This document shows positions 21,850 through 63,472 of a DNA stretch of 64,000 bases, piece by piece. The stretch spans positions 157,186 to 221,185 of the forward strand of contig WHVA01000158.1 of the NCBI GenBank assembly GCA_015179125.1. Direction: 5' to 3'. Under the pieces are notes generated by a model. It did no database searches and was not told the origin of the DNA. It saw only the letters and a program-made list of their open reading frames with translations. The DNA is from Gautieria morchelliformis (Eukaryota > Basidiomycota > Agaricomycetes > Gomphales > Gomphaceae). Position numbers and translations under genes: made by a program. Position 1 is the first letter of the stretch. Each line of letters begins with the position of its first letter.

Positions 21850-22080
21850 AGCAGTGAATGATTGTTCGGCGAAATGCGAGGAAGGACGAACAGAGGTGTC
21901 ATAGAGGAGGACAGGTCGAGGTGGAGGGCGAAGCCGAGCGAACACTGGGAAGGAGTAGCGAAAGGGGAAATGGGGATAACAAGGTGCAGGAAATACACAG
22001 GTCATGACAATCCAATTTACCAGAACACCATTGGAAGAGGGTCGAGCAGAGGAGGTGGTAGACCCAGCGATGACTGCTAA

Positions 22081-22755
22081 GGAGGGTGTTTGGAATTACT
22101 ATAATATCAGATGTTTACTAATAAAAGTGATGTTCCCATAAAACTCCATCTTTAAATAGTGATATCTTTTCTGAAACTATTCTATTATTAAACAGCAATT
22201 CTGGGAAATAGTTCTCCATGTTACATGCTAAACAATTAAAGGTCATTTAATAGAATCCACTGTATATGATTTCCTTCTGTTTCTAGATATCTGTTAATAC
22301 TTTTGTTGGTACTCCATTTTTTAAAAACTAAACTGCAGTTCTTTCCATATAAAATATGTAAGATATTATTGGAGATTTTTCATGCTACAACCTTCCTAAT
22401 TAAGCAAACCCGCCCAGGTATTCTTAGTATGTTGAATCAAATAGAAATATCTTCTAGTTAACTCACCCATTCCGAGGTAACACATATGTATTTAAAGGTG
22501 TCAATGGCATACATGTGTATGAAATGTACTATCTAAGGGAGTATACCTTTTAAAATTCTTAAAGTTCTAACTCAACACAGTGTTTGATAATCTATTCAGC
22601 TCTTAAAAGATGCTTTGTTTCACAATGTACAAATAAGTTTTAAAAATTCCAAAAGTTTTAAAATCTAAATTATGTTTAAAATAGATTTCAAGTATTTAAA
22701 TGATCTTAAGGAGATATTAGAGTTTGATACTTCTTATAGTTTCCGAACAACCTCC
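22081..22755. mobile_element. Tourist-like (PIF/Harbinger-type) MITE, copy 1 (675 bp)
   Basis: Imperfect terminal inverted repeats (GGAGGGTGTTTGGAA and GGAGGTTGTTCGGAA) are flanked by TAA on both sides (22078-22080, 22756-22758), the 3-base duplication typical of PIF/Harbinger. It is AT-rich and non-coding. A second 675-bp copy lies inverted at 45772-46446. Confidence 0.85.
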
Positions 22756-22927
22756 TAAGTCAGTCCAAAGATGTCGATCGTGCGTTTGACGGTGTAGCTA
22801 TGGTAATTGGTGCGAACAGCGAGAGTCAGTTGCCGAACACGACAATGGCGATCGGAACGAACATGGAAATGGGGTGAGAAATGGCAGGACAGAGCACCTG
22901 AGTATGAGAAATAAATGCGTCATGACA

Positions 22928-40500: not shown

Positions 40501-40525
40501 CCTCTGCATCCTGTGATCAGCCCTC

Positions 40526-41872
40526 ATGACTTTAGACACTCAACTGCGAGAAGTCACTACTCGGGGCAGAGGGCCCCAGTGGGTTGTCCCCTCTACCTTA
40601 GAGCGACAACAATTCTCAATGGCCTTGCCCTTCGAGATCTGGAGTCATATTTTCTGTCAGCTCCCCAATACTTCTCCAGCAAAACTTATCTGCGTTTCTC
40701 GAGCCTGGCGAAACGTGGTCCATGCCACACCCCAGCTTTGGACAGACGTCCACATTTGCCATCCACGCCAATTTGCCGATCCTGATGGGCTCTCTCTAAG
40801 GGTAAAAAATTCGGGCCAGTGTCCACTTAATGTAGTGCTGAGGGTCCCACTCGAAGTCCATGGGTTGGGGCCCACCTTGGAGCTGTTGCATGGCCATGCA
40901 AGACGATTCCGAGTCCTCGACATCGATGTGCCTGTCCCTGATATATTGGACACAATCCTTTTATCAATGGCGCACTGCGGAGTGATATCCAAAGGGAATC
41001 CAGCACCACTTCTAGAGGAGTTGACCATTGACATTGACGAGGAACCCATATCCTCAAATACAAGGCAACTCCACTTTGAGCGTGCATTTTATCCAGCTCC
41101 GCGGCTTTGGAAACTAACTATATCTGCGTTGAGGTTTCCTCTGCCTTCATCCAAATTTATTTCAACCATCACTGCACTTACGATCACCGCCGGGGGTGAC
41201 GACGCACCTCCTAGGGTTGAGTGGATGTTGGACACTGTCGAGGCGATTCCCCGCCTTAAAAGCCTCAAGTATTTCGGATACGAGGTTTATTCGTACCAAC
41301 CTACCAGCAGCCTTGACTTTCCTCGCATCGTTCGCCTTCCTAACCTTGAAGTAGCAGATGTCACAGCTCCCGGCTGCGGCCTCGAAATGTTGCAGTGTTT
41401 GGAAGCACCGAACCTTCGCTTCCTCCGTCTAGACGGTGAAAGGGAGATGGGTTATCGAGAAGAATGGATTTACGACGGGGTGGCTGAAGTGTCTCCATTC
41501 CTCAGGCGCCTGCCTCAGCGAGCGCCAAGTATTCAGAGGCTGGATCTCCATCATCTCCAGTATTTGCAAGCCGAAACATACGTTTGGCTGTTCAACCAGA
41601 CTGATTTCACTCATCTCGAGGAGGTGCGCATCGAAGGCTCAAATATTGCGGACTCAGCATTCGTTCAACCCTCCTTGCATAGTCTGGGCTTACGCCGGAT
41701 CGAGCTGAGAGACTGTGAACTCATAACAGGCAGCGGCTTGATGGCTTATATCGAGGCCAGACAACTGTTGGGAAACAACGACTTACAGCTATTAGTGAGT
41801 GGATGTCCAGGCGTGGGTGGCGAGCATCTGGCGCAGTTGTCTCGATGGACTGCTGAGGAAGTTAACGATTAG
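40526..41872 (+). CDS. F-box/LRR-type protein (448 aa)
   Basis: An intronless frame with an F-box at residues about 31-75 (MALPFEIWSHIFCQLP, LICVSRAWRNVVHATPQLWTDV). A long Leu-rich region follows with irregular repeats (LEELTID, LWKLTISALRF, LEVADVTAPGCG, LRFLRLDGE, IQRLDLHHLQYL, LHSLGLRRIEL). Such proteins bind Skp1 through the F-box and offer substrates to an SCF ubiquitin ligase; Agaricomycetes have hundreds of them. The length is usual for the family (400-600). The ATG at 40526 is the first in frame and suits a full F-box. It begins right at the edge of duplication copy B. The best-supported intact host gene here. Confidence 0.9.
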   Translation: MTLDTQLREVTTRGRGPQWVVPSTLERQQFSMALPFEIWSHIFCQLPNTSPAKLICVSRAWRNVVHATPQLWTDVHICHPRQFADPDGLSLRVKNSGQCPLNVVLRVPLEVHGLGPTLELLHGHARRFRVLDIDVPVPDILDTILLSMAHCGVISKGNPAPLLEELTIDIDEEPISSNTRQLHFERAFYPAPRLWKLTISALRFPLPSSKFISTITALTITAGGDDAPPRVEWMLDTVEAIPRLKSLKYFGYEVYSYQPTSSLDFPRIVRLPNLEVADVTAPGCGLEMLQCLEAPNLRFLRLDGEREMGYREEWIYDGVAEVSPFLRRLPQRAPSIQRLDLHHLQYLQAETYVWLFNQTDFTHLEEVRIEGSNIADSAFVQPSLHSLGLRRIELRDCELITGSGLMAYIEARQLLGNNDLQLLVSGCPGVGGEHLAQLSRWTAEEVND

Positions 41873-42532: not shown

Positions 42533-42556
42533 TAGTGATGCTCAGGCACTGCAGGC

Positions 42557-42932
42557 ATATAAAAGTTTTCTTGTCTGAAAAACTGTTGAAGAAACTGTAA
42601 AAATTTTCCAAAAATTTTTAGTGTTTTTTATGTAAAAAAAATAATAAAATTTTGTGTTTTTATTAGAATTTGTTGAGCAAGAAAATTGTAAAAAAATTCA
42701 AAGTTTTTTCAGGGTTTTTTATGGGTTTCTTTGTTTTCACAAAGAAGCTTATAAAAAGACATAAAAAACCCTGCAAAAAACTTTAAACTTTTTTACAATT
42801 GTCTTGCTCAACAAATTCTTACAAAAACACAAATTTTGTTAAAGTTTTTTTACATTAAAAACACTAAAATTTTTCGGAATATCTTTATAGTGTTTTGAAC
42901 AGCTTTTCAGACCAGAAAATCTTTATATGCCT
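42557..42932. repeat. AT-rich foldback (about 170-base arms)
   Basis: The left arm from GGCATATAAAAGTTTTC and the right arm (reverse GGCATATAAAGATTTTC) pair along their length with roughly 85% match by eye, around a centre near 42745 (TTTGTTTTCACAAAG). It lies just inside the left end of the hAT element. Confidence 0.85.
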
Positions 42933-43198
42933 CCAGTGAGGCCAGGCTGGGCTCAGAAAGCCTGGGCTTGGGCTTGGCTTTAGCAGGCTCAGGCTCAATG
43001 AAACCTCGAGCCAGCCTATTAGTCAGGCTCAGGCTGGGTCAGGCTTGAGCCCGGGCTTCACCTATGAAAAAAAGAGATGAAAAAAAAATAATATGATTAA
43101 GCCTGTCAGCAAGTGCACTTGTATCCTAGGTAGTGTCCCCTTCATTGCTTCCATAAGACACTACTGCATCATCGTCCAAGGCCATCTCAGTTCTGGTG

Positions 43199-45253: not shown

Positions 45254-45771
45254 GTTACCTGTCTCCTTGCCCAAACCTCCCTCTGAGTTTTGACCCCTGT
45301 CAAGATTGGTTTTTAGGCGTTACACCTGTTTGCAGTACCTAAGGCATGCATCAGATTTGCTTCCGTTTTAGTGCGCAAACCTTGAACAGCGATATCTTGC
45401 TTGATATCGGTCCGATTCGCTTGAAATTTCATATCTGAAGTTATGTGGACCATAACTAGGGCATAGAACTAAAAAATCCAAACAAAACAAGTTTTTTTTT
45501 CTATTTTGCATTGTGGGTGCTGAGGGGGGTACAATGTCAAGCTTAGCTTACTGTATGTAGTTCAATGCAGGTTTTAATTTTGTTTGCTACTTTGTACTAA
45601 TGGTGAGAACCGACTACAGGAGAATCTCCAGAAGAGGGTGTCGTAGGATTGGAGAGGAAGGGCTTAGCTTCTTCTGACGTTGGAGTAATGAGATCTGGCG
45701 GTAGGCATTCATTCTTGATGTTGGATTTCCTCCTGTGTAGCATAAGCCCCGAAAATCTGAGGGATCATATA
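45254..45771. other. Stretch between hAT and MITE, with an LTR end
   Basis: TGTCAAGATTGGTTTTTAGGCGTTA at 45299-45323 is the first 25 bases of the TGTCAAG-family LTR; similarity then ends. The rest has no gene or repeat that I recognise. Confidence 0.4.
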
Positions 45772-46446
45772 GGAGGTTGTTCGGAAACTATAAGAAGTAT
45801 CAAACTCTAATATCTCCTTAAGATCATTTAAATACTTGAAATCTATTTTAAACATAATTTAGATTTTAAAACTTTTGGAATTTTTAAAACTTATTTGTAC
45901 ATTGTGCAACAAAGCATCTTTTAAGAGCTGAATATATTATCAAACACTGTGGTGAGTTAGAACTTTAAGAATTTTAAAAGGTATAATCCCTTAGATAGTA
46001 CATTTCATACTTGTGTATACCATTGACACCTTTAAATACATATGTGTTACCTCGGAATGGGTGAGTTAACTAGAAGATATTTCTATTTGATTCAACATAC
46101 TAAGAATACCTGGGCAGGTTTGCTTAATTAGGAAGGTTGTAGCATGAAAAATCTCCAATAATATCTTACATATTTTACATGGAAAGAACTGCAGTTTAGT
46201 TTTTAAAAAATGGAGTACCAACAAAATTATTAACAGATATCTATAAACAGAAGGAAATCATATACAATGGATTCTATTAAATGACCTTTAATTGTTTAGC
46301 ATGTAACATGGAGAACTATTTCCCAGAATTGCTTTTTAATGATAGAATAGTTTCAGAAAAGATATCACTATTTAAAGATGGAGTTTTATGGGAACATCAC
46401 TTTTATTAGTAAACATCTGATATTATAGTAATTCCAAACACCCTCC
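45772..46446. mobile_element. Tourist-like MITE, copy 2 (675 bp, inverted)
   Basis: Matches 22081-22755 in reverse orientation over its full length with roughly 95% identity by eye. Ends GGAGGTTGTTCGGAA and ...TTCCAAACACCCTCC. A clean 3-base TSD is not visible (ATA on one side, TAT on the other). It ends 39 bases before the palindrome. Confidence 0.85.
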
Positions 46447-46485
46447 TATTAGTTATAGAATCATATGATTATTATCTACAGTTGC

Positions 46486-47044
46486 GGTGATATGAATATC
46501 ACAGAATATAAATTGTATAATTTTACCACAACAAAATAATATGATATATAGGGAAGGGGTGGGGGGTCACCGGCCTTGGGTCTGGATGCCAAACAGTAAC
46601 ATGGCTAACCGCTTAGGGGGGTCCCCGGTGGTAAAACTCCCCACTTCAGCATCACATTTTTACCACTACCATTGATAACATATAGATCAACATATCTTCT
46701 CACTAATTATATATAAACATTAAAATATCACTGTTTTGACCCTGTATTATTAACAAACCCTGTGTATAAACTGAGAACAGTATAAATATGTCAAAACAGT
46801 GATATTTTAATGTTTATATATAATTAGTGAGAAGATATGTTGATCTATATGTTATCAATGATAGTGGTAAAAATGTGATGCTGAAGTGGGGAGTTTTACC
46901 ACCGGGGACCCCCCTAAGCGGTTAGCCATGTTACTGTTTGGCATCCAGACCCAAGGCCGGTGACCCCCCACCCCTTCCCTATATATCATATTATTTTGTT
47001 GTGGTAAAATTATACAATTTATATTCTGTGATATTCATATCACC
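46486..47044. repeat. Near-perfect palindrome, 255-base arms
   Basis: Arms 46486-46740 and 46790-47044 are inverted copies with one mismatch that I can see; the centre is 49 bases. Each arm has a GC-rich block (GGGAAGGGGTGGGGGGTCAC) in otherwise AT-rich sequence. It lies directly upstream of the helicase gene. It could be a hairpin telomere, a replication origin or a head-to-head joint. Confidence 0.95.
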
Positions 47045-47127
47045 AAATTATTGATAATAATATTCTTATTGTTAGATATATATTTAGAAATTGATTTTTT
47101 ATGGTCTGTAATAGTATATGATAGAAT

Positions 47128-48534
47128 ATGACTGGCAGATATGAGAAGGCTTTATCTAAGTTACAAGAGCTATCTTGCATAGAATGGATAGGTAGCCATT
47201 GTGATAATATCCTTGTTGGTGTTCTGTATGAACTTCTTGTTGGAGAATTAGTTCACTCCGATAAAGAATGGTGGTATTTTGCAGATGGAACTTGGCAGAA
47301 GGATGGGGGTGAATACTTGTGGAATATCATATCGGAAACATTTGTATCTTTTCTCCGTGATGATATACCCAAGGATGACATTCCTGTTAAGGACATTATC
47401 AGATATCTTGGTTCTTCTATTACTACCATGAGGTTGATGAAGGCCTTATCTTATAAGCTGGGAGATCCTAAATTTGTAGGCAAACTTAACTCTAATGTAG
47501 GTCTTTTGGGAATGAAGAACGGGACCTATGATATTAACTCCAAATCTTTTAGAAAGACCTTATCTTCTGACTATATTTCAATGACATGCGGGGTTAAATA
47601 TAAAGAGAAATATAGAGATGAGGATTTAGTTGAATTCATGAAGATACTAAAACAAATTTTCCCAAGAAATGATGTATTAGATTTTTTCATACGAACATGT
47701 GCTTCTATGCTTGAGGGCTATAACAAATGTAAGATATTCTATGTATGGTGGGGGAAAGGAAATAATGCTAAGACGTTAATGCAAAGATTTATTTCATCTA
47801 TTCTTGGTGATTATGCAGCTTGTCTTTCCACATCCTTGATTACTGGTAAAAGAGCTAACTCTTCTGATGCTACTCCAGATATACAATATGCAAAGAATAA
47901 GTTGGCTGTTTTCTTACAAGAACCCAATCCTGATGAAAAAATACAAGTAGGTAGACTTAAGGAGTTGACAGGTAATGATAAAATATACTCAAGAGGATTA
48001 TTCAAATCTAGTGAAAGTATGGAGTTTAGAGCTAAGATAGTTGTTGTGGCCAACAATGCACTTGAAGTGCCAGGTATGGATGTACCCTTCAGAAGGAGGA
48101 TAGTTGTAATACCATTTGAAAGTACCTTTACTGATTCTATGGATGGTGGTGAACATGTTTTTTCTGAAGATGTAGAGATGGAGGAAAAGATTTCCAAGTA
48201 TAGAAAAATCTTTATGGCTATGATTCTAGATGAATATTCAAGATTTGTTAAGGAGGGCCTGAATATTCCTCAGTATATTAAGGATAAGACTTCAGAGTAT
48301 ATAACACTTAATAATTATGTTTTGAAGTATATAAGAACTGGACTCTCCAGTCCTGGTAAAAACTTACAGGGTTTGGATTTGTATGATAACTTCAAAGACT
48401 GGGTCCGGAAATCATGTCCTGGAAGAAATATCCCATTATTCACATCTTTCTTAACAGAGTTAAGGAATGAAGGATATGAGGAGATTTATGGACTTGTGAA
48501 GAATGTAACATGTGTTTTTATCGATTGCGAATAA
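47128..48534 (+). CDS. D5-type SF3 helicase (viral primase-helicase family)
   Basis: 468 residues, ATG 47128. It unwinds DNA at a replication fork, as a hexamer in known relatives. Residues about 30-200 match the D5_N region (GVLYELL, WWYFADGTW, VGLLGMKNGTYD, ISMTCGVKY). The SF3 core has Walker A GKGNNAKT (209-216), Walker B AVFLQE (260-265), motif C VVVANN (305-310) and arginine fingers FRRR (321-324). A winged-helix-like tail follows (DLYDNFKDWVRKSC). The archaeo-eukaryotic primase part found in front of many viral D5 proteins is absent, so this is helicase only. Relatives occur in large DNA viruses, virophages, phages and plasmids. No introns. It lies 83 bases after the palindrome. Confidence 0.88.
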   Translation: MTGRYEKALSKLQELSCIEWIGSHCDNILVGVLYELLVGELVHSDKEWWYFADGTWQKDGGEYLWNIISETFVSFLRDDIPKDDIPVKDIIRYLGSSITTMRLMKALSYKLGDPKFVGKLNSNVGLLGMKNGTYDINSKSFRKTLSSDYISMTCGVKYKEKYRDEDLVEFMKILKQIFPRNDVLDFFIRTCASMLEGYNKCKIFYVWWGKGNNAKTLMQRFISSILGDYAACLSTSLITGKRANSSDATPDIQYAKNKLAVFLQEPNPDEKIQVGRLKELTGNDKIYSRGLFKSSESMEFRAKIVVVANNALEVPGMDVPFRRRIVVIPFESTFTDSMDGGEHVFSEDVEMEEKISKYRKIFMAMILDEYSRFVKEGLNIPQYIKDKTSEYITLNNYVLKYIRTGLSSPGKNLQGLDLYDNFKDWVRKSCPGRNIPLFTSFLTELRNEGYEEIYGLVKNVTCVFIDCE

Positions 48535-48573
48535 TATAAGATATAGTTGGTTTTTAAAATTTCAGAACAGTGT

Positions 48574-48930
48574 TTACCTCTTACAGGCTTTCCCAGATCT
48601 ATCCTTATTTATTATTAAATTATTGAGTTTATCATTGATTTCCTCCAACTTCTCAAGAATATCTTCATGAAGTGTAGAGCATCTCTCTTTAAACAACTTA
48701 TCATTTATTTCCTCCAACTTATGGAAAACATCTGCACTGGATGCAGAGCCTCTTTCTTCAAATAGCTTATCAAACAACTTATCAACTATATCCTCTGACT
48801 GTTTTTCCTCTTTTATTTTTCTTCTTCGATCCCTCTGATATTTGTTTATACAGTCTTTACAACGTGAATCTGGTTCTCTATAAAAGAACACATCCATTCT
48901 CTCTTCCTCACATCCTATGCAGAACTTCAT
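48574..48930 (-). CDS. Small CxxC/CxxC zinc-binding protein with coiled coil
   Basis: 118 residues, opposite strand, tail to tail with the helicase (39 bases apart). Two Cys pairs (C4, C7, C24, C27) form a probable treble-clef or zinc-ribbon knuckle of a type common in phages and large DNA viruses. A basic stretch (QRDRRRK) and then a helical region with two copies of KLEEINDKL follow, so it may form oligomers. Function unknown; DNA or RNA binding is likely from the charge. Related by pattern to 50342-50602. Confidence 0.65.
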   Translation of the reverse strand: MKFCIGCEEERMDVFFYREPDSRCKDCINKYQRDRRRKIKEEKQSEDIVDKLFDKLFEERGSASSADVFHKLEEINDKLFKERCSTLHEDILEKLEEINDKLNNLIINKDRSGKACKR

Positions 48931-49115
48931 TGTTGTTATAAGAGTATGCGATAGTCAACAATATTCATTTTCAGGGTTATATATTAGTAGTGTTATATAG
49001 TTACTATAGAAATGTATTATTCAGTAATGTGGTGAGCAGATTCAAAAAATTGAATTAGTTCCAGATTGAATATATGTAGTAGGACAATAGTAGGTCATTG
49101 TGTGTAATAGGCATC

Positions 49116-50210
49116 ATGAATGTACTCTCAAAGATTGTAAGCTCCCGTCAGTCTGATAAAGATAGTAAAGATGATGGTACTCCTGTATCTGATACCAGAC
49201 ACAGATTTAAGTATCCAGATCTAAAAAGTGGTCTCACTGATCATATAACAGCTCATATGAAGGGAAACAAATTTGATTATGTAACTATAAGTAAGGCACC
49301 TAAGGTATCCAGAAATGCTATGTTACAAGCTCTCAGGGAATTTAAACCTTACAGTAGAGAGAAGATAGGACGGATTGACTTAGATGATATACCTCCAATT
49401 GATCTTGTTAAAGAGAAAGAAGAATTTGTCTTATCAGCTGCACTAAATACAAAGGGCCTTAACAAATACATTTTGATTGATAGTATATATGTTGACTTTG
49501 TTCCACTCTCATCATTCTTGGATTCATGTTCTGAGATAAGAATCTCATTGATTGACGGAAGAAAGGTCCATGATAAAGAAGTAAGGAGTTACGTTGGAAA
49601 TTCTAATATTAGTGAGAAAATAATAGGTGGTTTGGATTATTGCTTTCCTACCAAGAGTTTGGGAAAAATAAAATTTGTTATCAGTTGCAGGGGAACAGAT
49701 ATAGAGCAAGGAGAGGAATGGGGTGTGATAAAAGTAAAGATTGATATCCAACCTTTGGTATACCCTAAACAGGTTCCTGTGAAGGATACTGTAGGAATAT
49801 TAGACATGGATTACACAGCCTTTGAGGATCTCAAGACAGATCCCAGGCATTTCAATACATTAGTTGATCAGAAAGATCTAGATGCATTGAAAATAATGCA
49901 TAGAGATAATGATATAGTAGACCAGTCCAAACCCATCGAAGAACTATCCAAACCTGTAACATATGCAGGTACTAGATTCCTAGGTGGGGGTGCCCAAGGC
50001 TCAGATAATGCCAGCATTATTGATGATATCCCATCTGCATCTAGTAAGGAGGATGATGAGGATAGTAAAATTAAGAAATGGGTTAACAAGGTTGAGCCAG
50101 ATGATGAGATAAAGGATGTAGCAGCTCCTAAGAAGAATACATTATTCATCAAGGCGAATGGGAATAAGTCTCCTTTTAAGAAATCAACCAGGTTTAGTGG
50201 CGATAAGTAG
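49116..50210 (+). CDS. 30K movement-protein-like / jelly-roll-like protein
   Basis: 364 residues from ATG 49116. Residues about 114-210 look like a beta-rich domain: YILIDSIYVDFVP, then IRISLIDGR with an Asp in a D-x-R motif, then LDYCFPT, KIKFVISCRG and WGVIKVKIDI. This order of strands with the D-x-R element is that of the 30K superfamily of plant-virus movement proteins, for example geminivirus BC1, which share the jelly-roll fold of small capsid proteins. The C-terminal 100 residues are acidic then basic and probably disordered. I could not run a profile search; other beta-sandwich proteins remain possible. In a fungus its role would be nucleic-acid binding or a capsid-like one. Confidence 0.4.
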   Translation: MNVLSKIVSSRQSDKDSKDDGTPVSDTRHRFKYPDLKSGLTDHITAHMKGNKFDYVTISKAPKVSRNAMLQALREFKPYSREKIGRIDLDDIPPIDLVKEKEEFVLSAALNTKGLNKYILIDSIYVDFVPLSSFLDSCSEIRISLIDGRKVHDKEVRSYVGNSNISEKIIGGLDYCFPTKSLGKIKFVISCRGTDIEQGEEWGVIKVKIDIQPLVYPKQVPVKDTVGILDMDYTAFEDLKTDPRHFNTLVDQKDLDALKIMHRDNDIVDQSKPIEELSKPVTYAGTRFLGGGAQGSDNASIIDDIPSASSKEDDEDSKIKKWVNKVEPDDEIKDVAAPKKNTLFIKANGNKSPFKKSTRFSGDK

Positions 50211-50341
50211 GAATTGAGATTATGCTGAAGCTCCTTTCAAGAAATCAACCAGTCTAGTGATGATAAATAGGAATGTTATTTGAGATTATGCTGTTTTAAA
50301 ATTTATATACTCACCTAACTAAACTCTTAGTTTAATATAAA

Positions 50342-50602
50342 CTAAACTCTATCAATTGATAATTTTTTAATCCCATCTTTTAAGTTTTCTAGTGTATCTT
50401 TAACTTCTTTCCATTTCTTTTTATTGTATGCCTTCATGTAGTCCCTCCAACACCCTTTACAATACCTAGTAGCACTAGACTCATAAAATTCAACATCAGA
50501 TTTTTTACACTTAAAGCAAATACGAACTTCTTTAACTACATCTCTTTCATCTTCATCTTTTATACTAAAGACACCTATATCATCTATTCCATTTTCTTTC
50601 AT
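50342..50602 (-). CDS. Second small CxxC/CxxC zinc-binding protein
   Basis: 86 residues on the minus strand. ICFKCKKSDVEFY and RYCKGCWRDYMKAY place four cysteines (29, 32, 48, 51) as in the 118-residue protein at 48574, and a basic helix follows. The two probably arose from one gene. Like its sister it faces the plus-strand genes. It could bind nucleic acid; no closer call is possible. Confidence 0.6.
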   Translation of the reverse strand: MKENGIDDIGVFSIKDEDERDVVKEVRICFKCKKSDVEFYESSATRYCKGCWRDYMKAYNKKKWKEVKDTLENLKDGIKKLSIDRV

Positions 50603-50818
50603 ATACTCTCCTAATGTTTTCCTCCTGTCATTCTTAGTAATTGGTTTTATGATGTAGTCTTATAAATCATTGTCCTTTAAGAAGTCACCTAGTTTTTTAT
50701 TTAGATCTGGTTTCTTACCTGACATTCTGTCTTAGTTAAAAGATTAGTTTATACTGTTCATCAATCATTTTACTTTCCTAAATTGAATTATTATGAACTG
50801 ATATACTAGTGATAGGAA

Positions 50819-51526
50819 ATGAATACTATTAATAGTACTAGAGAGACAAGGAATAGGATAATACGTACAATTGTCTCTATTATTAGGGAGCATAATCCTC
50901 CAGATATAGCAGAGGCAGATTATACAACTGATTTCAAAGTATTAATACCCTCCCTTGACTATGATGTGACTCAATACTTCTCTCTCAAGATTTCACTATC
51001 AGAGGTTAGTATTGAGAAAGTTCTCTATTTCCTTGAAAATATAAAATCTAACAATGTGATTCTCCACGACATTGACATTACTCAAGATGTTCCATATATA
51101 ACAAATAGGGAGATAGTAGAAGAACATATTCTAGAGAGAGGAATAGAGAGAAGACTCATTGTCAGTGATCTATATAAGGTAGGGAAGAATTGTATATCTT
51201 TCTATAATAGAGATCCTTCAGAAGATACTGGAAGAACTCTTCTTAGGATTAAAGTGTATAACAAGTTCATCCAGATGCTAGAGAGCTCTAGTGTTAGAAC
51301 CACTCTAGGATCTAGAATACATAATATTTTTGTAGATCCTACAGATTCTATGGAGAGAACATTTGAAAGAACAAGAAAAGTTGGACTTACAAGGATAGAA
51401 ATGAAGTTCTATGGTCAAGAAATTCGGAACTTAGATTATTATATTAAGAAATTCACCAGAACCAAAAGAAAGTACTTACAAGGTTGCAAATTTTACAAAG
51501 CCTCATTTGATAGTCAATGGAGCTGA
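50819..51526 (+). CDS. Replication-initiator-like ORF (tentative)
   Basis: 235 residues, ATG 50819. The features that suggest an initiator are RIKVYNK (143-149) followed by a Glu (155), then IERTF-like spacing and LTRIEMKF (190-197). This K-x-Y-(D/N)-K...R-x-E pattern is found in Rep_trans and phage-type initiators that nick one strand. No HUH motif is evident and I cannot name the catalytic Tyr. It is AT-rich and intronless like its neighbours. It could equally be an unrelated viral protein. Confidence 0.35.
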   Translation: MNTINSTRETRNRIIRTIVSIIREHNPPDIAEADYTTDFKVLIPSLDYDVTQYFSLKISLSEVSIEKVLYFLENIKSNNVILHDIDITQDVPYITNREIVEEHILERGIERRLIVSDLYKVGKNCISFYNRDPSEDTGRTLLRIKVYNKFIQMLESSSVRTTLGSRIHNIFVDPTDSMERTFERTRKVGLTRIEMKFYGQEIRNLDYYIKKFTRTKRKYLQGCKFYKASFDSQWS

Positions 51527-51559
51527 CTTATTGACAAAATACATAAGGACCAAGTAATA

Positions 51560-52093
51560 ATGGTGTACCTAAAGAGTGATAATATGCTTGCATATTGTCA
51601 CTGGTGGAACTCCATAACAAAGAAAATGCAAGGGTGTTATAATACAATATCACAAAATGATGACCTGAAAACATTAATAGCAAACTACAGCTTCAATGAA
51701 ATGACTACAAAACTTATCATTGTAGATATTGATGGAGAAACCTGTAAAGAATATAGGAGGGTAACTAATGCAATTACTCTTATCCCAGGTCCTCAGAGGG
51801 GATTATATCCACAAAGTAGGGCTCAGCTATATTCAGAAGATGTAGGACTAGTAGAATACCAAGGGATTAATATAGGCTGGCCCGATTTTAGGATTAGACC
51901 AAGTGATAATTCTCTAGCACAGATAATAGAAGTATCTGAGTCAGAAGATTTAGAAGATATAACATGCTTCAATGGTTACCAAGCGGCATATAGCATATTG
52001 GAACCATATTCAAGATATCAGGCTATAGCAAAAGGAATGTCTGAATGGAGAGGAAGAGAATATTTATTCCTCAATGGAATATGTTCACATTGA
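51560..52093 (+). CDS. Unrecognised ORF of the virus-like element
   Basis: 177 residues, ATG 51560, 33 bases after the initiator-like ORF and on the same strand. It is rich in Trp, Tyr and acidic residues (CHWWNSITKKM, NIGWPDFRI, ISEWRGREYLF-like end). No domain recognised. Base composition matches the rest of the element. Confidence 0.5.
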   Translation: MVYLKSDNMLAYCHWWNSITKKMQGCYNTISQNDDLKTLIANYSFNEMTTKLIIVDIDGETCKEYRRVTNAITLIPGPQRGLYPQSRAQLYSEDVGLVEYQGINIGWPDFRIRPSDNSLAQIIEVSESEDLEDITCFNGYQAAYSILEPYSRYQAIAKGMSEWRGREYLFLNGICSH

Positions 52094-52691
52094 CAACAAT
52101 GTATATTCTTCTAGGATATATTAGATATCTTTTAAAATATCAACCCTAACCAAATTCATAATCCATCATTTTGAGCAACTTGTATATTGTGGACATCCTA
52201 AATTTTTTTGAATGTTCTGATATTTTAAAAATATGGTTGTATGTGCTAAAGCATGGTGTGTATTGATATAACAGAGCAATTTCAGATAGGATTTGGATGA
52301 CTATATATTAAAAGTATATATGACGCTTGTTACATGTATGATGATAGAATGTAGAGGCGAGTATGGACTATATGAGTACACGTTAGAAGTATATATGAAA
52401 CATGTTAGATGTACAATCACAGAATATAGAAGCAAGTATGGACAATACCTGTACTATATTATTATATATGGTTGATAGATCTGATTAGAAGGTATGTTTA
52501 AAATAATATGCATGTATAGTACAAAGATATGTAACTATTGATGTTTAGACAATGGGGTATACACCCTTTCCTGGGGGAGCAGCAGACTGTGAGAAAGAAC
52601 TTTAGGGCTAGGATTAAGCATGTCTTACAGATGCTGGCAACTGCCTCAATTGTGATATATTTTATGAAATATAGATGAGCTAAGCTATATA
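52094..52691. other. AT-rich tail of the virus-like element
   Basis: No gene. A 76-base direct repeat (about 52296-52372 and 52373-52447: ...AGAAGTATATATGAAACATGT-type units) shows roughly 75% match. A 60-codon frame over it is a by-product of the repeat. The palindrome at 46486 has no second copy here. Confidence 0.5.
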
Positions 52692-52744
52692 TCTATAGTA
52701 TAAAGTTCTAGGGGGGGCGGTTGTGGGCCTCCCTATATGAAAAC

Positions 52745-55519: not shown

Positions 55520-56081
55520 TGTAAGGACCCGGCCTTTGGCCGGCTACTTACCGGTAGAACCTTCTTCCGAGCCCCAAGCCTTGTGATATCCGTGCCCGAG
55601 TACATATGATACTTATCCGCGCCCGAGCCCGAGCCCGAGCTTGAACTCATATCCGACCTTGATCCCATGCCCGTATCCCCCTTAGTTACTGATTCCGCTC
55701 CATCACGCATCATTCGTATATTACCTCGCCCTGACCTCGGTCTCCTGACCTCGCCCTGACCTCCACTAATCTGTTCGCCCCTGACTTGCACCTCGTCCGT
55801 ATATAACCCCTTGTATGCATTCCTACTCCTCAGTCTGAAAATCAACTATCGTGTCCCTTCGATCCCTAGCTAGTTTCTACGCCTCACCTCTTAAGCTAGA
55901 ACCTCGCCTCTTATTCGTTTACCTCCGAAGTTGGGACTCGTGCGTAGGGTCGGCGCAGCACATAAGCTGAAGCCAAGTCCCTCTCTGACTTCCCCATCCA
56001 AACCTCGCCCTGTAACCTCGGACCTTGACTCGGGTTTCGTCCCCGACCTCGGTCAACCTTACGACGGATCGTATCGTAACA
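55520..56081. mobile_element. Solo LTR (562 bp) in the Helitron gene
   Basis: TGTAAGGACCC...GTATCGTAACA is flanked by AACCT on both sides (55515-55519, 56082-56086). The Helitron reading resumes directly after it (PEPLKTLLVSQDRRGKQF). It contains GAGCCCGAGCCC-type repeats and a TATATAA near 55800. Probably a gypsy-type LTR from its TGTAAGG start, but no internal sequence is present. Confidence 0.92.
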
Positions 56082-58710
56082 AACCTCCAGAACCACTAAA
56101 GACTCTTTTGGTCAGCCAAGACAGGCGTGGCAAACAGTTTAGGGAAAAGATTCGGAACTATAATGCTGCACTGGCATTCATCTCTGTGGGAGTGAACATA
56201 GATGACAAGGTCGTGAATAGACCTGGGCCATATGTCTTCAAAATTCAGGGAGGCCTCTATCATATTCATGGCGCTCTTCTTCCTACTCAGGGTCAGGATA
56301 GGGCACCCAGCTATGCGCAGCTCTACTTTTATGATCCAGCAGAGGCTTTGCGATGTAGGGAGGCCAATAACAGTTTTGATCCTTTGGATTCAGATGTTTT
56401 AAGTGACCTCCAAGAAATGATGCAGGCTCACAATCCATTGGTTCCAATCTATCAGCAGGCGATGGAAAGGCTTAGGAACCAGCCAGATAGGTTGACTGTG
56501 GAGGCCAGACTCACCTACAGAGCACATACAGACCAGAGAAGATATAATATTCCTACAGCGGATGAGATTGCCATTGTGCTCCCTGGAGAAGGTGTGCCTG
56601 GAGACACTAGAGACATTGTCATTCAGCTTAGAGGTGGAGAACTGCAACGAATTCAGGCCGAACATGCTTTGTATGCACCACTACACTATGTGCTTCTCTT
56701 TCCCAGAGGTGAATCAGGCTGGGATTGGGACATTCCACGGATAGACCAAGCTCTTCCACGACAAGGCCAGGAGGGGGAGGAGGAGGAGGACCCTTCAAGT
56801 GACAGGCGTGTGACCATGTCAAAATACTATCGTTATCGTCTTTTTCCAAGGGAGGGTGAAGCTGAAACTCTCTTCCTAGCTGGCAAGCTCTTTCAGCAAT
56901 ACATTGTGGATGCTTGGGCAGCGACTGAACAGCAGAAGCTAAATTGGATCAAATACCATCAACACGAGCTGCGAGGTGAGGTCTACAATCAGATGATTGA
57001 TACATTTGGACCTGAGGACAATCAGGCCAATCCAGCTAACTTGGGACAAAAGGTCATCTTGCCTGCTACATTTACTGGGAGCGCCAGGGATATGAACGAG
57101 AATTTTCAAAATTCAATGGCAATCACTAGGAAGCATGGTCCAGCAGATGTCTTTGTGACAATGACAGCAAACCCCCACTGGAAAGAAATCAAAGATGCTC
57201 TCAAGCCAGGCCAGACTCCCAGTGATCGTCCTGACTTGGTTGCAAGGGTTTTTCATCTCAAGAAGGAGCAATTGATCAAATGTATCATGAAGGATGGTAT
57301 CCTTGGTCACACAGTTGCACGTGTCCATGTGATCGAATTCCAAAAGCGGGGCTCCCTCATATGCACCTTCTTATATGGTTTAAAGAGGAGGATAAGATCA
57401 GGACACCAGAAGCTGTGGATGCTTTTGTTTGGGCTGTCTTCCCTGATCAGCAAGAGCATCCAAGGCTCTACAAATTAGTTTGTGATCTAATGACTCATGG
57501 CCCCTGTGGACAAGCGCGTCCTCGGGCTTCTTGCATGACAGAGGGCAAGTGTTCTAAACATTTCCCAAAGGAATTTTGTGAGGTGACATCTGTCACTGAA
57601 GATGGCTATCCACAGTATCGCCGTCCTAATGATGGCAGACAGCATAATGTCAGAGGCAACATCATGGACAACCGCGACGTGGTTCCCTATTGTCCCACCC
57701 TCCTCTTGGAATTGAATGCCATATTAATGTGGAACCCACATTCAATGTGCGCTCTATCAAGTACATTCACAAGTATATGTACAAGGGGCCTGACAGGACC
57801 ACAATGACCATTAATAAGGAGAGGGATGAGGTTAAACAGTACCTCGATGCATGCTATGTCAGCTCACATGAAGGTGCTTGGAGACTGCTGGAATATAAAA
57901 TGCATGTTCAGGTCCCTCCTGTCATGGCACTTCCAGTCCATTTGCCAGGCCAGCACAATGTGATATTTGATCCTCATATGGATCCAGGCATGGCTTTGCA
58001 GAGGGCAGAGGATGCTAAGACCATGCTCATGGCCTATTTTGAAGCCAATGACAGATATCCTGAGGCACATGAACTACTCTATGTGGAATTTCCTGAGCAC
58101 TATGTTTGGAAAAAGCAAGCCAAGCGGTGGCAGCCTCGCCAGTGGGGTTTCAGTCTTGGTCGCCTTCATTTTGCAAGTCCAGCCTCTGGAGAGCGCTTTT
58201 TGTTGCAAACCCTCCTTACAGTTGTCAGAGGCGCAACGTCATTTGAGGAGCTTAGATCCTTTGATGGTGACCTTTGTCCTACTTACAAGGCTGCATGCCT
58301 GGCAAGGGGCCTGTTAGAAGATGATTCAGAGTGGACACAGTGTCTTCAGGAGGCTGCACATATACAAACAGGTTTCCAGCTCAGGAGGTTATTTGTCACT
58401 ATTCTCCTTCGGTGTAACCCTGCTCGGCCTGCTCAAATCTGGGAGGAGTTTCAGGAGCGTATTTGTGATGACCTTGAGTATCAGCTTCAAAATAGGCATG
58501 GCATTCACCATCCTACCAATGATCAAATCTATGACTTTGGTCTCTTTCTCATTGACAAGATCATACGTCAGGGGGGGAAGTCTCTGGATGAGTTCCCAGA
58601 TATGCCACAGATAATGGGGCACTGGGAGGGATTGGTAGGGAACCGTTGGATAGCTGAGCAGCGGGACTATGACCCAGCTACAGAGCTGGAAAAGGCCGCC
58701 ACCAATATTG
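56082..58710 (+). pseudogene. Helitron Rep (HUH nuclease) domain with frameshifts
   Basis: Reads first in 56084-57370 (KQFREKIRNYNAALAF, LLFPRGESGWDWDI, YYRYRLF, QQYIVDAWA), next to 57807, then from 57690. The rolling-circle nuclease is shown by the HUH motif in GLPHMHLLIWF (near 57350-57382) and the two-tyrosine motif KYIHKYMYKGPDR (57757-57795), the residues that nick and join DNA. Reading frame changes near 57345 and near 57710, each in the middle of a conserved block, so they are true frameshifts and not introns. The C-terminal part (to WIAEQRDYDPATEL) precedes the helicase and is cut by copia D. Confidence 0.85.
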
Positions 58711-59208
58711 TGTAGAGGACAGGAATTATAGGCAGTAGGTATGGACTTGTTATTCAAAAGAATAGACTAGAAATCAATTCACTCTCTCAGTGAATTTAGT
58801 GGTCACTCTAAATATATTATACACTACCTAGAAATCAATTCACTACAGAGGATTTCTAGGTCAATAAATGCAAAGACTACTAGACTAATTTACTTGCCTC
58901 TCTCAGTGAATTTAGTGGTCACTGAGAGAGGGGGAAATGTGTTCCACTGCGCATGTACTACTACCCGGCCCTTTAGCGCCCAAGAGCTCGCGCGTCGAAG
59001 TCATTTCAGACTCCGCTGGGTGCAGCCGCTTGTGAAAGTAGGAATAACAAGATGAAATAGAGAGATAAGGAATGAGTGGAAAATTTCGAAAATAACCAGA
59101 GAAATGGATGCATAATACAAGAACAATGTGAGAAGAAATTGGAAGGCCACACAACAAATTGGATATATTATGCTTGATTTTGGTGCAGGAGCATAAATGC
59201 ACCCAACA
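58711..59208 (-). repeat. 3' LTR of copia D (498 bp)
   Basis: TGTAGAGGAC...ATGCACCCAACA. Contains the CTCTCTCAGTGA...TCACTGAGAGAG hairpin at about 58899-58931. Confidence 0.95.
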
Positions 59209-59220
59209 CGCCCCCTCAAG
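59209..59220 (-). promoter_or_regulatory. Polypurine tract of copia D
   Basis: Minus strand CTTGAGGGGGCG directly before the 3' LTR; expected plus-strand primer. Confidence 0.75.
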
Positions 59221-59221
59221 C

Positions 59222-62200
59222 TTAATATATTCCGATTTTCTCGTTGAGAATCTTCACTCTAGGACTAGGAAGTCCTTTAGTGAGGATATCTGCCAACATT
59301 TGTTCGGTTGGCAAATAAACGAGCTTGGCTTGTTGATTTTTGATTATATCTCGAAGGAAATATAATCGGATGTCGAAATGCTTGGTTCTCGTGTGTTGTT
59401 GGGTGCCATACGTGATGGCAATGGCTGATTGATTGTCTGAATAAACTTGGATGGGTCTGTTCAGTGGTTGGAATATTTCAGAAATAAAATGGCGCATCCA
59501 AAGAGCCTCTTTGCCCGCATGGGTCAGGGCGACGAATTCGGCTTCAGTTGATGAGAGGGCTACTATCGACTGTTTCTGGCAACTCCATGAAACAGTGCCT
59601 CCATCAATCTGAAATAAGTATGCCGAATATGAACGCCTATGACTCTGTGAACCCCAATCCGCATCTGAATATCCCATCAAGCCGTCTTGATTTCTTCCAA
59701 GTGTGAGCTTGTAATGCTTCGTGCCTTTCAAATATTTGAAGACACGTTTGACTGCATTCCAGTGTGTGCCACCTGCATTTTCAAGGAATTGCGAGAGTAA
59801 TGACACCGCAAATGCAATGTCAGGTCGAGTGGCTACAGCCGCCCACATCAGTGATCCTATAGCTTGCCTGTATGGAAACTTCGACATGGCTTTCTTGCCT
59901 CTCTCTGTAGAAGGACATTGGTCTTTAGATAATTTTACGGCTGGATCAAGAGGCGTAGCATAAGTCTTTGCATCTTCGAGATTAAATTTTTTGATGATCT
60001 TCTCGATGTATGCAGGTTGTGAAATTGCAATGGTCTTCTTCTGCCAGTCTCTTTCGATTTTGAGATTCAATAGCCAATGAATCTCGCCTAGATCTTTCAT
60101 ACTGAAGACCTGAGCAAGATCTCGTTTGACTTCGTCCAGGACTGACTGATTTTCAGCTGTGATGGTAAGGTCGTCCACAGCTGTTGCAATGATCACATGC
60201 CCCTTTCCGCCACGTCTATAAAATACAGCCCCGTCTGTGGCTGACGTAGTGAATCCTAACTTGTGGAATTCACCACTTAGACGTTTGTACCATTCTCTTC
60301 CAGATTGCTTGAGGCCGTAGAGTGCTTTCTTCAAAAGTAGCACTTCGCCTTTGTCTCCTGACTCATATCCATACGGCTGCTTCATGTAAATAGGTTCGGG
60401 CAACGTAGCATTGAGGTATGCATAGTCCACGTCCATTTGATGAATAGGCCAGTCATTCCTAGCAGCAATGGCGCATATGATCCGTAGGGAGGATAACCGA
60501 GCAACAGGTGAGTATGTCTCATCATAGTCGATTCCAAACTTCTGCGTGAAGCCTTGGGCGACCATTCTCGATTTAGGTACTATTGGTTTCCCTTCTGGAT
60601 TACGCTTCCAAAGGTAGACCCATTTGTTGCCGACAATGTTGGCTCCAGGAGGTGGTTTGGTTCTTTCCCACACTCCCTTGTCGATTAGGGCCTCATACTC
60701 TTTGTCCATTGATTTCTTCCACATAGGATTATTCAGAGCTTCGTCTGCATTGCTAGGTTCAATTTGACTCAAATCCGGCGCCTTGTTATTGTTTTGACCG
60801 TCGGTTAGAAACGCACTGATGGCACACTCATAGCTACTGATGCCATCAATCTCGGAGGATAATTCTTGGTCGAATAAAACTTCTTTATGGTCCTCAACGT
60901 CCTCGTAAGCTAGCGTAGTCATATGTGCGCCAGTTTGTCTCTGAGTTTGAGATCTTGTCACGGGACCTGATGGGGCCGGCTGCACTTGTTGTTGACGGAT
61001 CCTTTCGCTTCTCCTTATCGGTTCAGCTTCTCTAGGTCTGTCATCAACTCCCTGAATAGGTTGCAGCTTTTCAAGATATTCTTCCGGTGCACTTTCATCA
61101 ATTTCTTCGATCTTTGCCTCTTCGCTGACTAAGCGACCGGGCACAGGCACTGATGCCGGAATGGCCTTCTTCTCTTCTTTAGACGTAGGTAGCTTGGATT
61201 CCTCAATAGAAATGATTGGGACCTTTCCCTTCTTCATTTCTGAATCAAAGACAACGTTCCGCTCGACAGAAACTTTGTGCGAGTCAGGCCAATAAACATA
61301 ATGACCATGGCTCTGCGCAGAAATTCCTATCCACCGAGCTCTCTTGGCACGAGCTGCCAATTTATCTCCCTGAGTGATTTTAACGTAAATTTCAGTTCCC
61401 CACGCGTGAATGTCTTTGAGATTCGGTTTTTCATGGTGAATCATCTCGTAGGGCGTTTTATCTGGTAGAGCTCTTGTATGCGTCCTGTTCCTAAGATAAT
61501 TGGCATGCTGTATCGCATAGCCCCATAATATCTTAGGAAGGCCTGATTCTAGCAGCATGGCACGAGTTCTCTCAGTGAGAGTTCGGTTCAGGCGTTCCGC
61601 AACACCATTGGACTCTGGTGTGTCGTGTACCGTCAACTGATGCTTCGTGCCTTGTTTGGCTAGATGCTGTTCGAATTCAGAGCTCATATACTCGCCCCCT
61701 CGATCAGAAACAAGTGCCTTGATGTGCACATTTCTCTGTCGAAGCATTAAAGCCTCGTAGAGCTTGTACTTTGAGAATGCTTCTGATTTGTTCGCCATGA
61801 GATAGATCACCGATTCTCTTGAGTAGTCATCGATAAAGGAGACATAATATGACTTCTTATCGATCGTGAGGTGTCTTGCAGGTCCCCAGACATCAGAATA
61901 AATTCTGTCACCGAATTTTGATGTTCGGTCTCTGGGTTCTCGAGGAAGAGGTTTGCGCGCAATCTTGGCCTGAATACACGCATCACAGACAATTCTATCG
62001 CCTGTGGAGCTCAGTTCAATGCCCAATATCATGCCATGATTTAATAGATGTTGTAGGGACTTCTGCGAGATGTGCCCCATCTTTTGATGAATTTCCATGG
62101 CAGATAAACACATATGGGCTTGAGCACTTGGTGACTGGAGGTCTAGTCGATATAAGCCATTGACTTTCGGTGCTTGCATCAATACTTTTCCAGCAGCATT

Positions 62201-62824: not shown

Positions 62825-63467
62825 ACTGAGCCTTTAGTACCCTAATAATATTATCAGGGACCAATGGCATCCCGCATTCTTCAAGCGAAGTTGTAAGGGC
62901 ATTCATGACTGCCTCATAGGATGGTGGAAGTGACGCAAGGATTATGTCCATGAATTCTTCTTCAGAAACTCTAGCTCCCATCTCATTAAGACGAGCATAT
63001 AGGTCTTGGGCCTTGTCCAAGTGATCTCTCAAGTCTCCATCCTCAGGACATCTCATACTGCGGAGTTGTCTCTGCAGGCTGGTGAGGACCATCTTGGGCT
63101 TTTTGGTCATTTCATTGACCAGTGCATCCCAAGTCTCTTTTGCTGTCTTCTGCTTCTGTAGCATCAGGGCTAATGACTCTGACACTGAGACGATGATTTG
63201 GGTCTTGGCTTGTCCTTCTCTAGCAAGGTATCTCTCCAGCTTCTCCTCGGCCTTATCCATCTGAGTTTCCTCAGCTTCTGTTAGAATATGGCCTGGGGGC
63301 ATGACTGGAGGATCAGGAGGTCGAGTGACTCTCCCTTCTACATGCTTGAGCAGATTTTTGGACTCAAAATAGCTGATGAGAGTGGCTCGCCACAATGGCC
63401 AATTACTTCCATCAGTAGCAAGCTTCTCAACACCCAATAGCTTCTCAGAAGTGTCTCCGGGGCCCAT
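62574..63467 (-). CDS. copia D Gag
   Basis: 297 residues, ATG 63467 just inside the primer-binding site (MGPGDTSEKLLGVEKL). Copia Gag fold at about 15-215 (GSNWPLWRATLISYFESK, TAKETWDALVNEM, LQRQLRSMRCPE, LPPSYEAVMNAL), one CCHC knuckle CTNCKKPGHSIENC near 250 and a Lys-rich tail. It makes the particle and binds RNA. It overlaps the start of the Pol frame. Confidence 0.9.
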   Translation of the reverse strand: MGPGDTSEKLLGVEKLATDGSNWPLWRATLISYFESKNLLKHVEGRVTRPPDPPVMPPGHILTEAEETQMDKAEEKLERYLAREGQAKTQIIVSVSESLALMLQKQKTAKETWDALVNEMTKKPKMVLTSLQRQLRSMRCPEDGDLRDHLDKAQDLYARLNEMGARVSEEEFMDIILASLPPSYEAVMNALTTSLEECGMPLVPDNIIRVLKAQYDRKKTLPQEEQVFIGSSTKKDQKGQKAHVCTNCKKPGHSIENCWAKGGGKEGQGPRQKKKAKGKKKKKGKAKANVAGRRVYF

Positions 63468-63472
63468 AACCC

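What the first reader, a model, noticed from the sequence alone, without database searches (positions are those of the whole stretch)
46486..52691. Undescribed AT-rich virus-like cassette: palindrome, D5-type helicase, twin zinc proteins, 30K-like and initiator-like ORFs
Seen: a compact, intronless, strongly AT-rich block with six ORFs unlike any transposon gene in the window, and a sharp composition change at both sides. Known: D5-type SF3 helicases and CxxC/CxxC small proteins are typical of large DNA viruses, virophages, phages and plasmids. Inference: the block is an integrated fossil of a DNA virus or linear replicon in a basidiomycete. I know of no family that joins a D5 helicase with a 30K-like protein. 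No polymerase, capsid or integrase was recognised, so replication would lean on the host.
Basis: partly seen in the sequence, partly recalled or inferred. Interest (0 to 1): 0.9.

Follow-up and report, generated by a model that had tools for sequence, protein, structure and literature searches.

The report
Transposon carrying a virus-type replication helicase
The block is a damaged copy of a DNA element, repeated in this genome, that joins a cut-and-paste transposase to a virus- or plasmid-type helicase and a large palindrome; it matters because such transposon-replicon fusions are rarely seen.

Summary
The block is one copy, damaged at its right end, of a repeat family in a 122-Mb eukaryotic assembly. 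In C175 and C451 the unit spans about 8.8 kb (6.4 kb in C179, which has an inner deletion). It lies between 677-bp repeats in the same orientation with short inverted ends, and it ends in a DDE_Tnp_4 (PIF/Harbinger-type) transposase followed by a chromodomain. So this is a composite-like DNA transposon, built like KolobokP but with another transposase. Its inside carries a D5/P4-type helicase, two zinc proteins, ORF3 and a 557-aa protein (ORF5). C41 keeps a further gene, ORF0 (broken in C715). A second lineage in the same genome has a palindrome of the same layout whose sequence hardly aligns. A motif shared by both occurs 16 times in the genome, all inside palindromes or half-palindromes. The 30K claim is unsupported and ORF5 is unidentified. 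Best reading: a transposon joined to a virus- or plasmid-type replication module. Autonomous replication is inferred, not shown.

The parts
45771..46447 (+). Left terminal direct repeat (677 bp), ends AGGAGGTTGTT...AACACCCTCCT (imperfect inverted ends)
   Evidence: 40 near-whole places in own genome, this one included, 40 scored of 492 candidates; same-orientation partner at the other end of C175, C451, C179
46448..46485 (+). Short stretch kept from the ancestral region; ORF0, which follows here in C41 and C715, is missing in this copy
   Evidence: 46446-46485 matches L040 4-43 at 100%, after which L040 and L041 run on into ORF0
46468..47061 (.). Giant palindrome; core arms 46486-46740 and 46790-47044 (254 of 255 complementary), 49-nt centre
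   Evidence: palindromes in five other places of this family (C175, C451, C179, C41, C715) and, with different sequence, in lineage II
46611..46624 (-). Palindrome motif GGACCCCCCTAAGC, left arm
46906..46919 (+). Palindrome motif GGACCCCCCTAAGC, right arm
47128..48534 (+). D5/P4-type SF3 helicase gene, 468 aa, open
48574..48930 (-). Zinc protein 1, 118 aa (CxxC..CxxC; tail coded by a 69-nt direct repeat)
   Evidence: weak PHROG hit to endonuclease VII, E 0.001; in own genome only in C180, C175 and C451
49116..50210 (+).
   Evidence: no family hit; single-sequence model pLDDT 36
50342..50725 (-). Zinc protein 2, 127 aa in C175 and C451; here one premature stop leaves an 86-aa ORF (50342-50602)
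50819..52081 (+). ORF5 remnant (open over 557 aa in C179): 165 bp missing at 50967/50968, a stop at 51524-51526, cut off at 52081
52082..52695 (+). Part of the terminal repeat of a second chromodomain-transposase family, lacking its first bases and its far end; stands where the element's own transposase and right repeat would be
22080..22757 (-). Solo terminal repeat of the same family with TTA on both sides

Best explanation
The block is a damaged copy of a composite-like DNA transposon (LTR-like in layout). Its fullest form, put together from the order seen in different copies, is: terminal repeat - ORF0 - palindrome - D5 helicase - zinc 1 - ORF3 - zinc 2 - ORF5 - DDE transposase with chromodomain - terminal repeat. 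No single copy seen here holds all of these. Shown: the gene set, the same-orientation terminal repeats, a solo copy, 3-bp target duplications at some sites, the transposase and chromodomain, and a palindrome of the same layout in two lineages. Inferred: the transposase inserts the unit at TTA-like sites, the chromodomain guides it to chromatin of a certain type, and solo repeats either move in trans or arise by recombination. Inferred with less certainty: the helicase, helped by ORF5, copies the element outside or inside the chromosome from the palindrome. That would also explain why the two terminal repeats of one copy, and in some copies the two palindrome arms, resemble each other more than those of other copies. 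The replication module is of virus, phage or plasmid type, joined to a transposon lineage that also exists in the same genome without a detectable helicase.
For: Copies in C175, C451 and C179 are bounded by the 677-bp repeat in the same orientation. Within-copy repeat differences are 1, 7 and 11 substitutions; between copies 13 to 32. If the unit runs GGAGG...CCTCC, its neighbours are TTA/TTA at C175 and at the solo repeat in the window and ATA/ATA at C451. DDE_Tnp_4 2e-9 in C179; Chromo 6.6e-8 in C451; both domains in one protein at C437, 6e-13 and 2.3e-9. ORF0 and transposase neighbours: 25 same-strand pairs within 7 kb among 51 ORF0 and 64 transposase loci, 24 in the same order, about 0.2 expected by chance. 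ORF5 beside a transposase at 9 of 23 ORF5 loci. At C695 (lineage II) a palindrome of 232-nt arms with a 50-nt centre; its arms differ at 4 of 232 positions but align to the window family's arms over only a few dozen columns at most. Both-strand matches show a palindrome also at C248 and C249. The motif GGACCCCCC(N)TAAGC, which I picked by eye from the window and C695 palindromes, occurs 16 times in 122 Mb (0 for the reversed control pattern): 13 times inside palindromes or half-palindromes of the window family (places) and 3 times in those of lineage II. D5 helicase.
Against: No function was tested. All three near-full copies are damaged: C175 in ORF3 and ORF5, C451 in helicase, ORF5 and transposase, C179 by an inner deletion; some damage may be assembly error. 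C175, whose repeats are nearly identical, has a broken ORF3, so it moved with help in trans or its repeats were converted. C179 has no matching target duplication (TAA against ATA). dN/dS is mixed: helicase 0.90 on 18 changes, ORF5 N-part 0.78 on 4, ORF3 0.28 on 21, transposase 0.36 on 22, zinc 2 0.44 on 6, the 110-aa ORF of lineage II 1.07, so recent selection on the helicase is not shown. Helicase, ORF3 and zinc 1 were found in this genome only in this family and, for the helicase, in captured fragments, apart from a 41-aa helicase match at C337 and a different D5 helicase at C221. Arm likeness is not clean: C180, C451 and C179 arms differ from each other (1-6) about as much as within a copy (1-5), and C715 arms differ by 8 within and by 7-16 to others. 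Finding the motif in the window family's own palindromes is expected and adds little; its sharing by both lineages is the informative part.
Confidence: 0.75

Rival explanations
1. A DNA virus of fungi (or a linear plasmid) became endogenous and was joined to a transposase, so that the element is a virus-transposon fusion like Teratorn.
For: D5-type helicase related to the African swine fever virus C962R primase and to phage and plasmid primases; AT-rich compact genes on both strands; a giant palindrome, a layout recalled from ends of hairpin-ended viral DNA; zinc proteins with weak hits to phage endonucleases, E 0.001 and 0.005.
Against: No capsid, polymerase, packaging ATPase or protease was recognised in the Pfam, PHROG and NCBIfam scans, though ORF0, ORF3 and ORF5 remain unidentified. 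No relatives of helicase, ORF3 or ORF5 in IMG/VR (these find close relatives mainly). The palindrome and ORF5 also occur in lineage II, where no helicase was found.
Confidence: 0.3
2. The helicase cassette is inert cargo captured by a composite transposon; the palindrome is only a by-product of a head-to-head duplication.
For: Other repeats in this genome carry captured pieces of the element: a fused piece (47568 joined to 51769) in seven contigs and a helicase fragment of about 58 aa in a dispersed repeat. Helicase dN/dS between window and C175 is 0.90.
Against: The helicase is open over 468 codons in two copies. A palindrome of almost the same size occurs in lineage II with different sequence yet symmetric arms and the same motif, which a one-off duplication does not explain.
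Confidence: 0.25
3. The terminal repeats are independent MITE-like transposons that happen to flank the cassette; the composite moves only because its ends do.
For: Each repeat has its own inverted ends; in the capped list of 40 scored places most stand without a partner; a solo copy has TTA on both sides.
Against: Three copies have the same outer limits and orientation, and their two repeats resemble each other more than those of other copies. In the second family (C345) a repeat of the other kind stands about 5.5 kb upstream of the transposase and again directly after it, in the same orientation.
Confidence: 0.2

Closest known systems
KolobokP (Kojima and Bao 2022, PMC9587614; abstract, found passages and section 5 read)
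   Same: Long terminal direct repeats of ~450 or ~660 bp with their own short inverted ends, DDE transposase inside, many solo repeats, short target duplications
   Different: [quoted passage not shown] here the transposase is DDE_Tnp_4 with a chromodomain, and the inside holds a D5 helicase, ORF5 and a palindrome. The authors write 'Unlike any other DNA transposons' of their direct repeats
PIF/Harbinger (PHIS) DNA transposons (passages in PMC12730594 read)
   Same: DDE_Tnp_4 transposase, TTA duplication at two of four sites examined, short inverted ends
   Different: Long direct terminal repeats, chromodomain, virus-type helicase, no Myb/SANT partner found
D5 / P4-family primase-helicases (PF08706, TIGR01613; phages, plasmids, large DNA viruses)
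   Same: D5_N plus P4-type helicase domain
   Different: 468 aa without a recognised primase domain; sits in a eukaryotic transposon
Teratorn (piggyBac-herpesvirus fusion, PMC10175614; abstract and found passages read)
   Same: Cut-and-paste transposase joined to a DNA-virus-type replication gene
   Different: Teratorn is ~180 kb with an intact herpesvirus genome; this is ~9 kb with one recognised virus-type gene and no recognised capsid gene

Membership tests
KolobokP | Long terminal direct repeats with own short inverted ends | tested here: met
KolobokP | Solo terminal repeats | tested here: met
   Window 22080-22757; in the capped list most places have no partner, but unscored partners are possible
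KolobokP | Kolobok-type transposase | tested here: not met
   Pfam match is DDE_Tnp_4
KolobokP | His-Me finger nuclease | tested here: not met
   No such family among the element's genes; only weak zinc-region hits to phage endonucleases
PIF/Harbinger | DDE_Tnp_4 transposase with D-D-E positions | tested here: met
   IDGHDT, LDGGY and the E before FGE in alignment A2, read by eye; the first D is G in the C279 copy
PIF/Harbinger | 3-bp target duplication, TTA/TAA type | tested here: inconclusive
   TTA at C175 and the window solo repeat, ATA at C451, no match at C179
PIF/Harbinger | Second protein with Myb/SANT domain | tested here: not met
   ORF0, ORF5 and the 110-aa ORF have no Myb/SANT hit in Pfam
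LTR retrotransposon | Reverse transcriptase and integrase | tested here: not met
   No RVT or rve family in the genes scanned
Polinton / virophage-like | Protein-primed polymerase, capsid, packaging ATPase | tested here: inconclusive
   None recognised, but ORF0, ORF3 and ORF5 are unidentified, so a divergent capsid is not excluded
30K superfamily (ORF3) | Match to a 30K profile or fold | tested here: inconclusive
   No profile match; model too poor to compare, pLDDT 36
Rolling-circle initiators (ORF5) | Match to a Rep family | tested here: inconclusive
   No Rep family in Pfam, PHROG or NCBIfam; one comparison with a phage Rep_1 protein negative. A resemblance to Rep_trans motifs is recalled, not shown
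D5 / P4-family helicase | D5_N and P4-type helicase profile | tested here: met
   PF08706 2.2e-9 above its cut-off; TIGR01613 2.5e-31 at its cut-off of 108.7 bits

The most novel reading that the evidence does not exclude
A new class of eukaryotic mobile element: a composite-like PIF/Harbinger-type transposon that alternates between chromosomal insertion by a chromodomain transposase and self-directed DNA replication by a D5-type helicase from a giant, self-renewing palindromic origin. It would be the integrated stage of an otherwise unseen fungal DNA virus or plasmid.
Probability: 0.3. Interest if true: 0.88.

Novelty: new variant of a known kind. Interest (0 to 1): 0.7.

Why it matters
[quoted passage not shown] A small transposon family holding a virus-type helicase, with relatives in the same genome that have smaller gene sets (transposase with ORF0; plus ORF5 and palindrome; plus the helicase set), would make that question directly testable by comparison across species. 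It also suggests that the KolobokP layout arose in another transposase superfamily.

Tried and rejected
Assembly join of the whole block: rejected, since copies lie in several contigs with different flanks and some target duplications; the single junction at 52081/52082 stays unproven. Isolated viral fossil without integrase: rejected. LTR retrotransposon: rejected, no reverse transcriptase. Giant-virus arrays in C1, C915 and C237, suspected from helicase hits: rejected; the eight loci looked at hold only a fragment of about 58 aa. AT-rich inverted repeat at 42547-42938: judged unrelated by reading it. D5 helicase at C221: a different helicase, with no transposase or ORF5 hit in that contig. 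Folds of ORF3 and of the ORF5 piece without alignments: useless, pLDDT 36 and 35. Rep_trans idea for ORF5: B5 Rep is Rep_1, the SMA9 piece has no Pfam family, so the idea stays a recalled resemblance. IMG/VR scans with helicase, ORF3, ORF5 and the two-row ORF5 alignment found no relative; ORF5 had no plasmid match and only an E 2 phage match. Literature: the listings of searches showed no paper whose title or abstract start describes such an element; subscription papers and Repbase reports are not covered.
Full report
What is in the window. The region 45771-52695 is AT-rich (GC 0.28-0.36 by part, against 0.45-0.50 around it). It holds a palindrome with 255-nt arms, 254 positions complementary, an open 468-codon gene for a D5-type helicase, two small CxxC/CxxC proteins, ORF3 and two shorter ORFs. 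The left border is 45771, where a 677-bp repeat begins, not 46486.

It is a repeat family. The whole genome held for the window has 122,073,039 bases in 1113 contigs. Long copies were found in C175, C451 and C179 and a shorter one in C41. C715 has a palindrome and an interrupted ORF0, C271 a palindrome piece and an ORF0 fragment. Seven contigs (C154, C222, C648, C293, C311, C399, C449) carry a fused piece joining window positions 47568 and 51769; their loci also match each other beyond the piece, so it sits inside larger repeats. A helicase fragment of about 58 aa is scattered in another dispersed repeat.

Terminal repeats. The 677-bp repeat has 40 near-whole places, the window's own included, among the 40 candidates scored out of 492. 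In C175, C451 and C179 it stands at both ends of the element in the same orientation. Its ends are AGGAGGTTGTT and AACACCCTCCT, an imperfect inverted pair. The two repeats of one copy differ by 1, 7 and 11 substitutions in C175, C451 and C179, while repeats of different copies differ by 13 to 32. Taking the unit as GGAGG...CCTCC, the neighbours are TTA/TTA at C175, ATA/ATA at C451, and TAA/ATA (no match) at C179; a solo repeat inside the window (22080-22757) has TTA on both sides. The unit spans 63969-72783 in C451 and 202990-211750 in C175, about 8.8 kb; C179 has 114321-120718 and lacks window positions 48008-50422.

The missing genes. In C179 ORF5 is one open gene of 557 aa; in C451 and C175 it is interrupted. 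It is followed by a transposase: Pfam DDE_Tnp_4 2e-9 in C179, with a chromodomain after it (Pfam 6.6e-8 in C451; chromodomain relatives in the PDB; matching pieces in C175 and C179 by alignment only). Related proteins in the same genome carry both domains in one frame (C437; C279 by alignment). The right terminal repeat begins a few bases after the transposase stop. C41 has one more open gene, ORF0 (243 aa), between the left repeat and the palindrome; in C715 it is interrupted. The window copy lacks ORF0, the transposase and its own right repeat. In their place the sequence from 52082 is part of the terminal repeat of a second family, which at C437 and C345 follows directly on that family's transposase stop. 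At C345 a match to the same repeat also lies about 5.5 kb upstream of the transposase in the same orientation, so the second family seems to have the same layout.

Three lineages. From the hit positions I merged 64 transposase, 51 ORF0 and 23 ORF5 loci (lists). ORF0 and transposase lie within 7 kb on one strand 25 times, 24 of them in the order ORF0 then transposase; about 0.2 would be expected by chance. Lineage I: 20 of the 25, with unread sequence between the two genes (1.9-3.2 kb in 18 of 20; one of the 20 in reversed order). Lineage II (C154, C248, C249, C279, C538, C695): transposase then ORF5, with ORF0 0.4-0.5 kb upstream at five of the six and only a remnant at C279. At C695 a 110-aa ORF follows, then a palindrome, then a sequence whose first ~40 bases recur at many places in the genome, probably that lineage's terminal repeat. 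Lineage III is the window family. Helicase, ORF3 and zinc 1 were found only in lineage III and, for the helicase, in captured fragments, apart from a 41-aa helicase match at C337 and a different D5 helicase at C221. Zinc 2 was not searched on its own.

The palindrome. At C695 the palindrome has 232-nt arms and a 50-nt centre, almost the size of the window's. Its arms differ at 4 of 232 positions, yet they align to the window family's arms over only a few dozen columns at most. Both-strand matches show it also at C248 and C249, and half-palindromes at C513, C326 and C538. Within lineage III, arms of one copy differ by 1-8 positions and arms of different copies by 1-18; the contrast is clear for C175 and C41 but not for C180, C451, C179 and C715. 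One motif, GGACCCCCC(N)TAAGC, picked by eye from the two lineages, has 16 places in the genome and none for the reversed control pattern: 13 lie in palindromes or half-palindromes of the window family and 3 (C249, C513, C695) in those of lineage II. The 13 are expected from close relationship; the sharing across lineages is the point. A layout that stays symmetric while its letters change suggests a function of the symmetric form, such as an origin or a hairpin end. That is inference.

Relatives of the genes. The helicase resembles primase-helicases of phages (576 records; 26.4% identity at most in the 20 rows shown) and plasmids (288 records; 24.7% at most in the 20 rows shown), and African swine fever virus C962R among solved structures. 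The zinc proteins have weak PHROG hits to endonuclease VII (E 0.001) and HNH endonuclease (E 0.005). ORF0 and ORF3 have no hit. ORF5 has only weak ones (PHROG 29209 and 37286, E 0.006-0.007; DUF2666 E 0.0013, below its cut-off, for the C695 protein). No relatives of helicase, ORF3 or ORF5 came from IMG/VR. Codon comparison gives dN/dS 0.28 for ORF3, 0.36 for the transposase, 0.44 for zinc 2, 0.90 for the helicase and 0.78 for part of ORF5 between lineage III copies, the last two on 18 and 4 changes; 0.51 for ORF0 between C41 and C695, 0.35 for part of ORF5 between C695 and C279, 0.16 for the transposase between C437 and C279 and 1.07 for the 110-aa ORF. ORF5 keeps 47% identity between C179 and C695 with long open frames, which suggests past selection.

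How it most likely works. The transposase cuts and inserts the unit at TTA-like sites and the chromodomain may choose the chromatin. The terminal repeats look like those of KolobokP: they have their own inverted ends and occur alone (PMC9587614, abstract, passages and section 5). The likeness of the two repeats within a copy suggests that both are made from one template, as would happen if a circle or longer chain with one repeat per unit were copied before insertion; unequal crossing-over or conversion could do the same. The helicase, with ORF5 and the palindrome, is the natural candidate for that copying. None of this was tested.

What is known. The nearest architecture is KolobokP, the nearest transposase superfamily PIF/Harbinger, the nearest idea Teratorn (PMC10175614, abstract and passages). 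It shares KolobokP's layout but is not a member: the transposase and nuclease tests fail. The listings of nine literature searches showed no such element, in an open-access library that lacks many journals and Repbase.

Limits. Hit lists are capped, so counts are lower bounds. Broken genes may partly be assembly errors. The host was not identified beyond being a eukaryote with Copia, Ty3 and Helitron elements and an F-box gene.

Noticed in passing
window 13537-19734: Ty3-type LTR retrotransposon with 99.8% identical 466-bp repeats (13537-14002, 19269-19734) and a gag with zinc knuckle; a related sequence sits just upstream of the transposase in C437 (L065 3990-4501).
   Followed up: partly
window 58711-63969 and 196-4326: Two Copia regions about 80% alike; the first has direct repeats of 498 bp at 99.4% (58711-59208, 63473-63969).
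   Followed up: no
window 55895-57478: Helitron N-terminal domain ORF (Helitron_like_N, 3.4e-55).
   Followed up: no
window 42547-42938: AT-rich inverted repeat, self-complementary at about 82%, looks like a MITE; judged unrelated to the element's palindrome.
   Followed up: partly
window 40517-41872: F-box ORF, perhaps a host gene.
   Followed up: no
L067 2-748 (C221): A second, different D5-type helicase gene (249 aa of it seen), with no transposase or ORF5 hit in that contig.
   Followed up: partly
L013, L014, L015, L016, L021, L022, L025 and overlapping loci: A fused fragment of this element (47568 joined to 51769) is multiplied in seven contigs inside larger repeats, as if another mobile element had captured it.
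   Followed up: partly
L053-L060: A helicase fragment of about 58 aa recurs in a dispersed repeat; in L058 an ORF that looks by eye like a Harbinger transposase lies nearby.
   Followed up: partly
L065 3673-4068: 131-aa ORF upstream of and opposite to the C437 transposase with a weak PHROG hit of unknown function (phrog_2619, E 0.00016).
   Followed up: no
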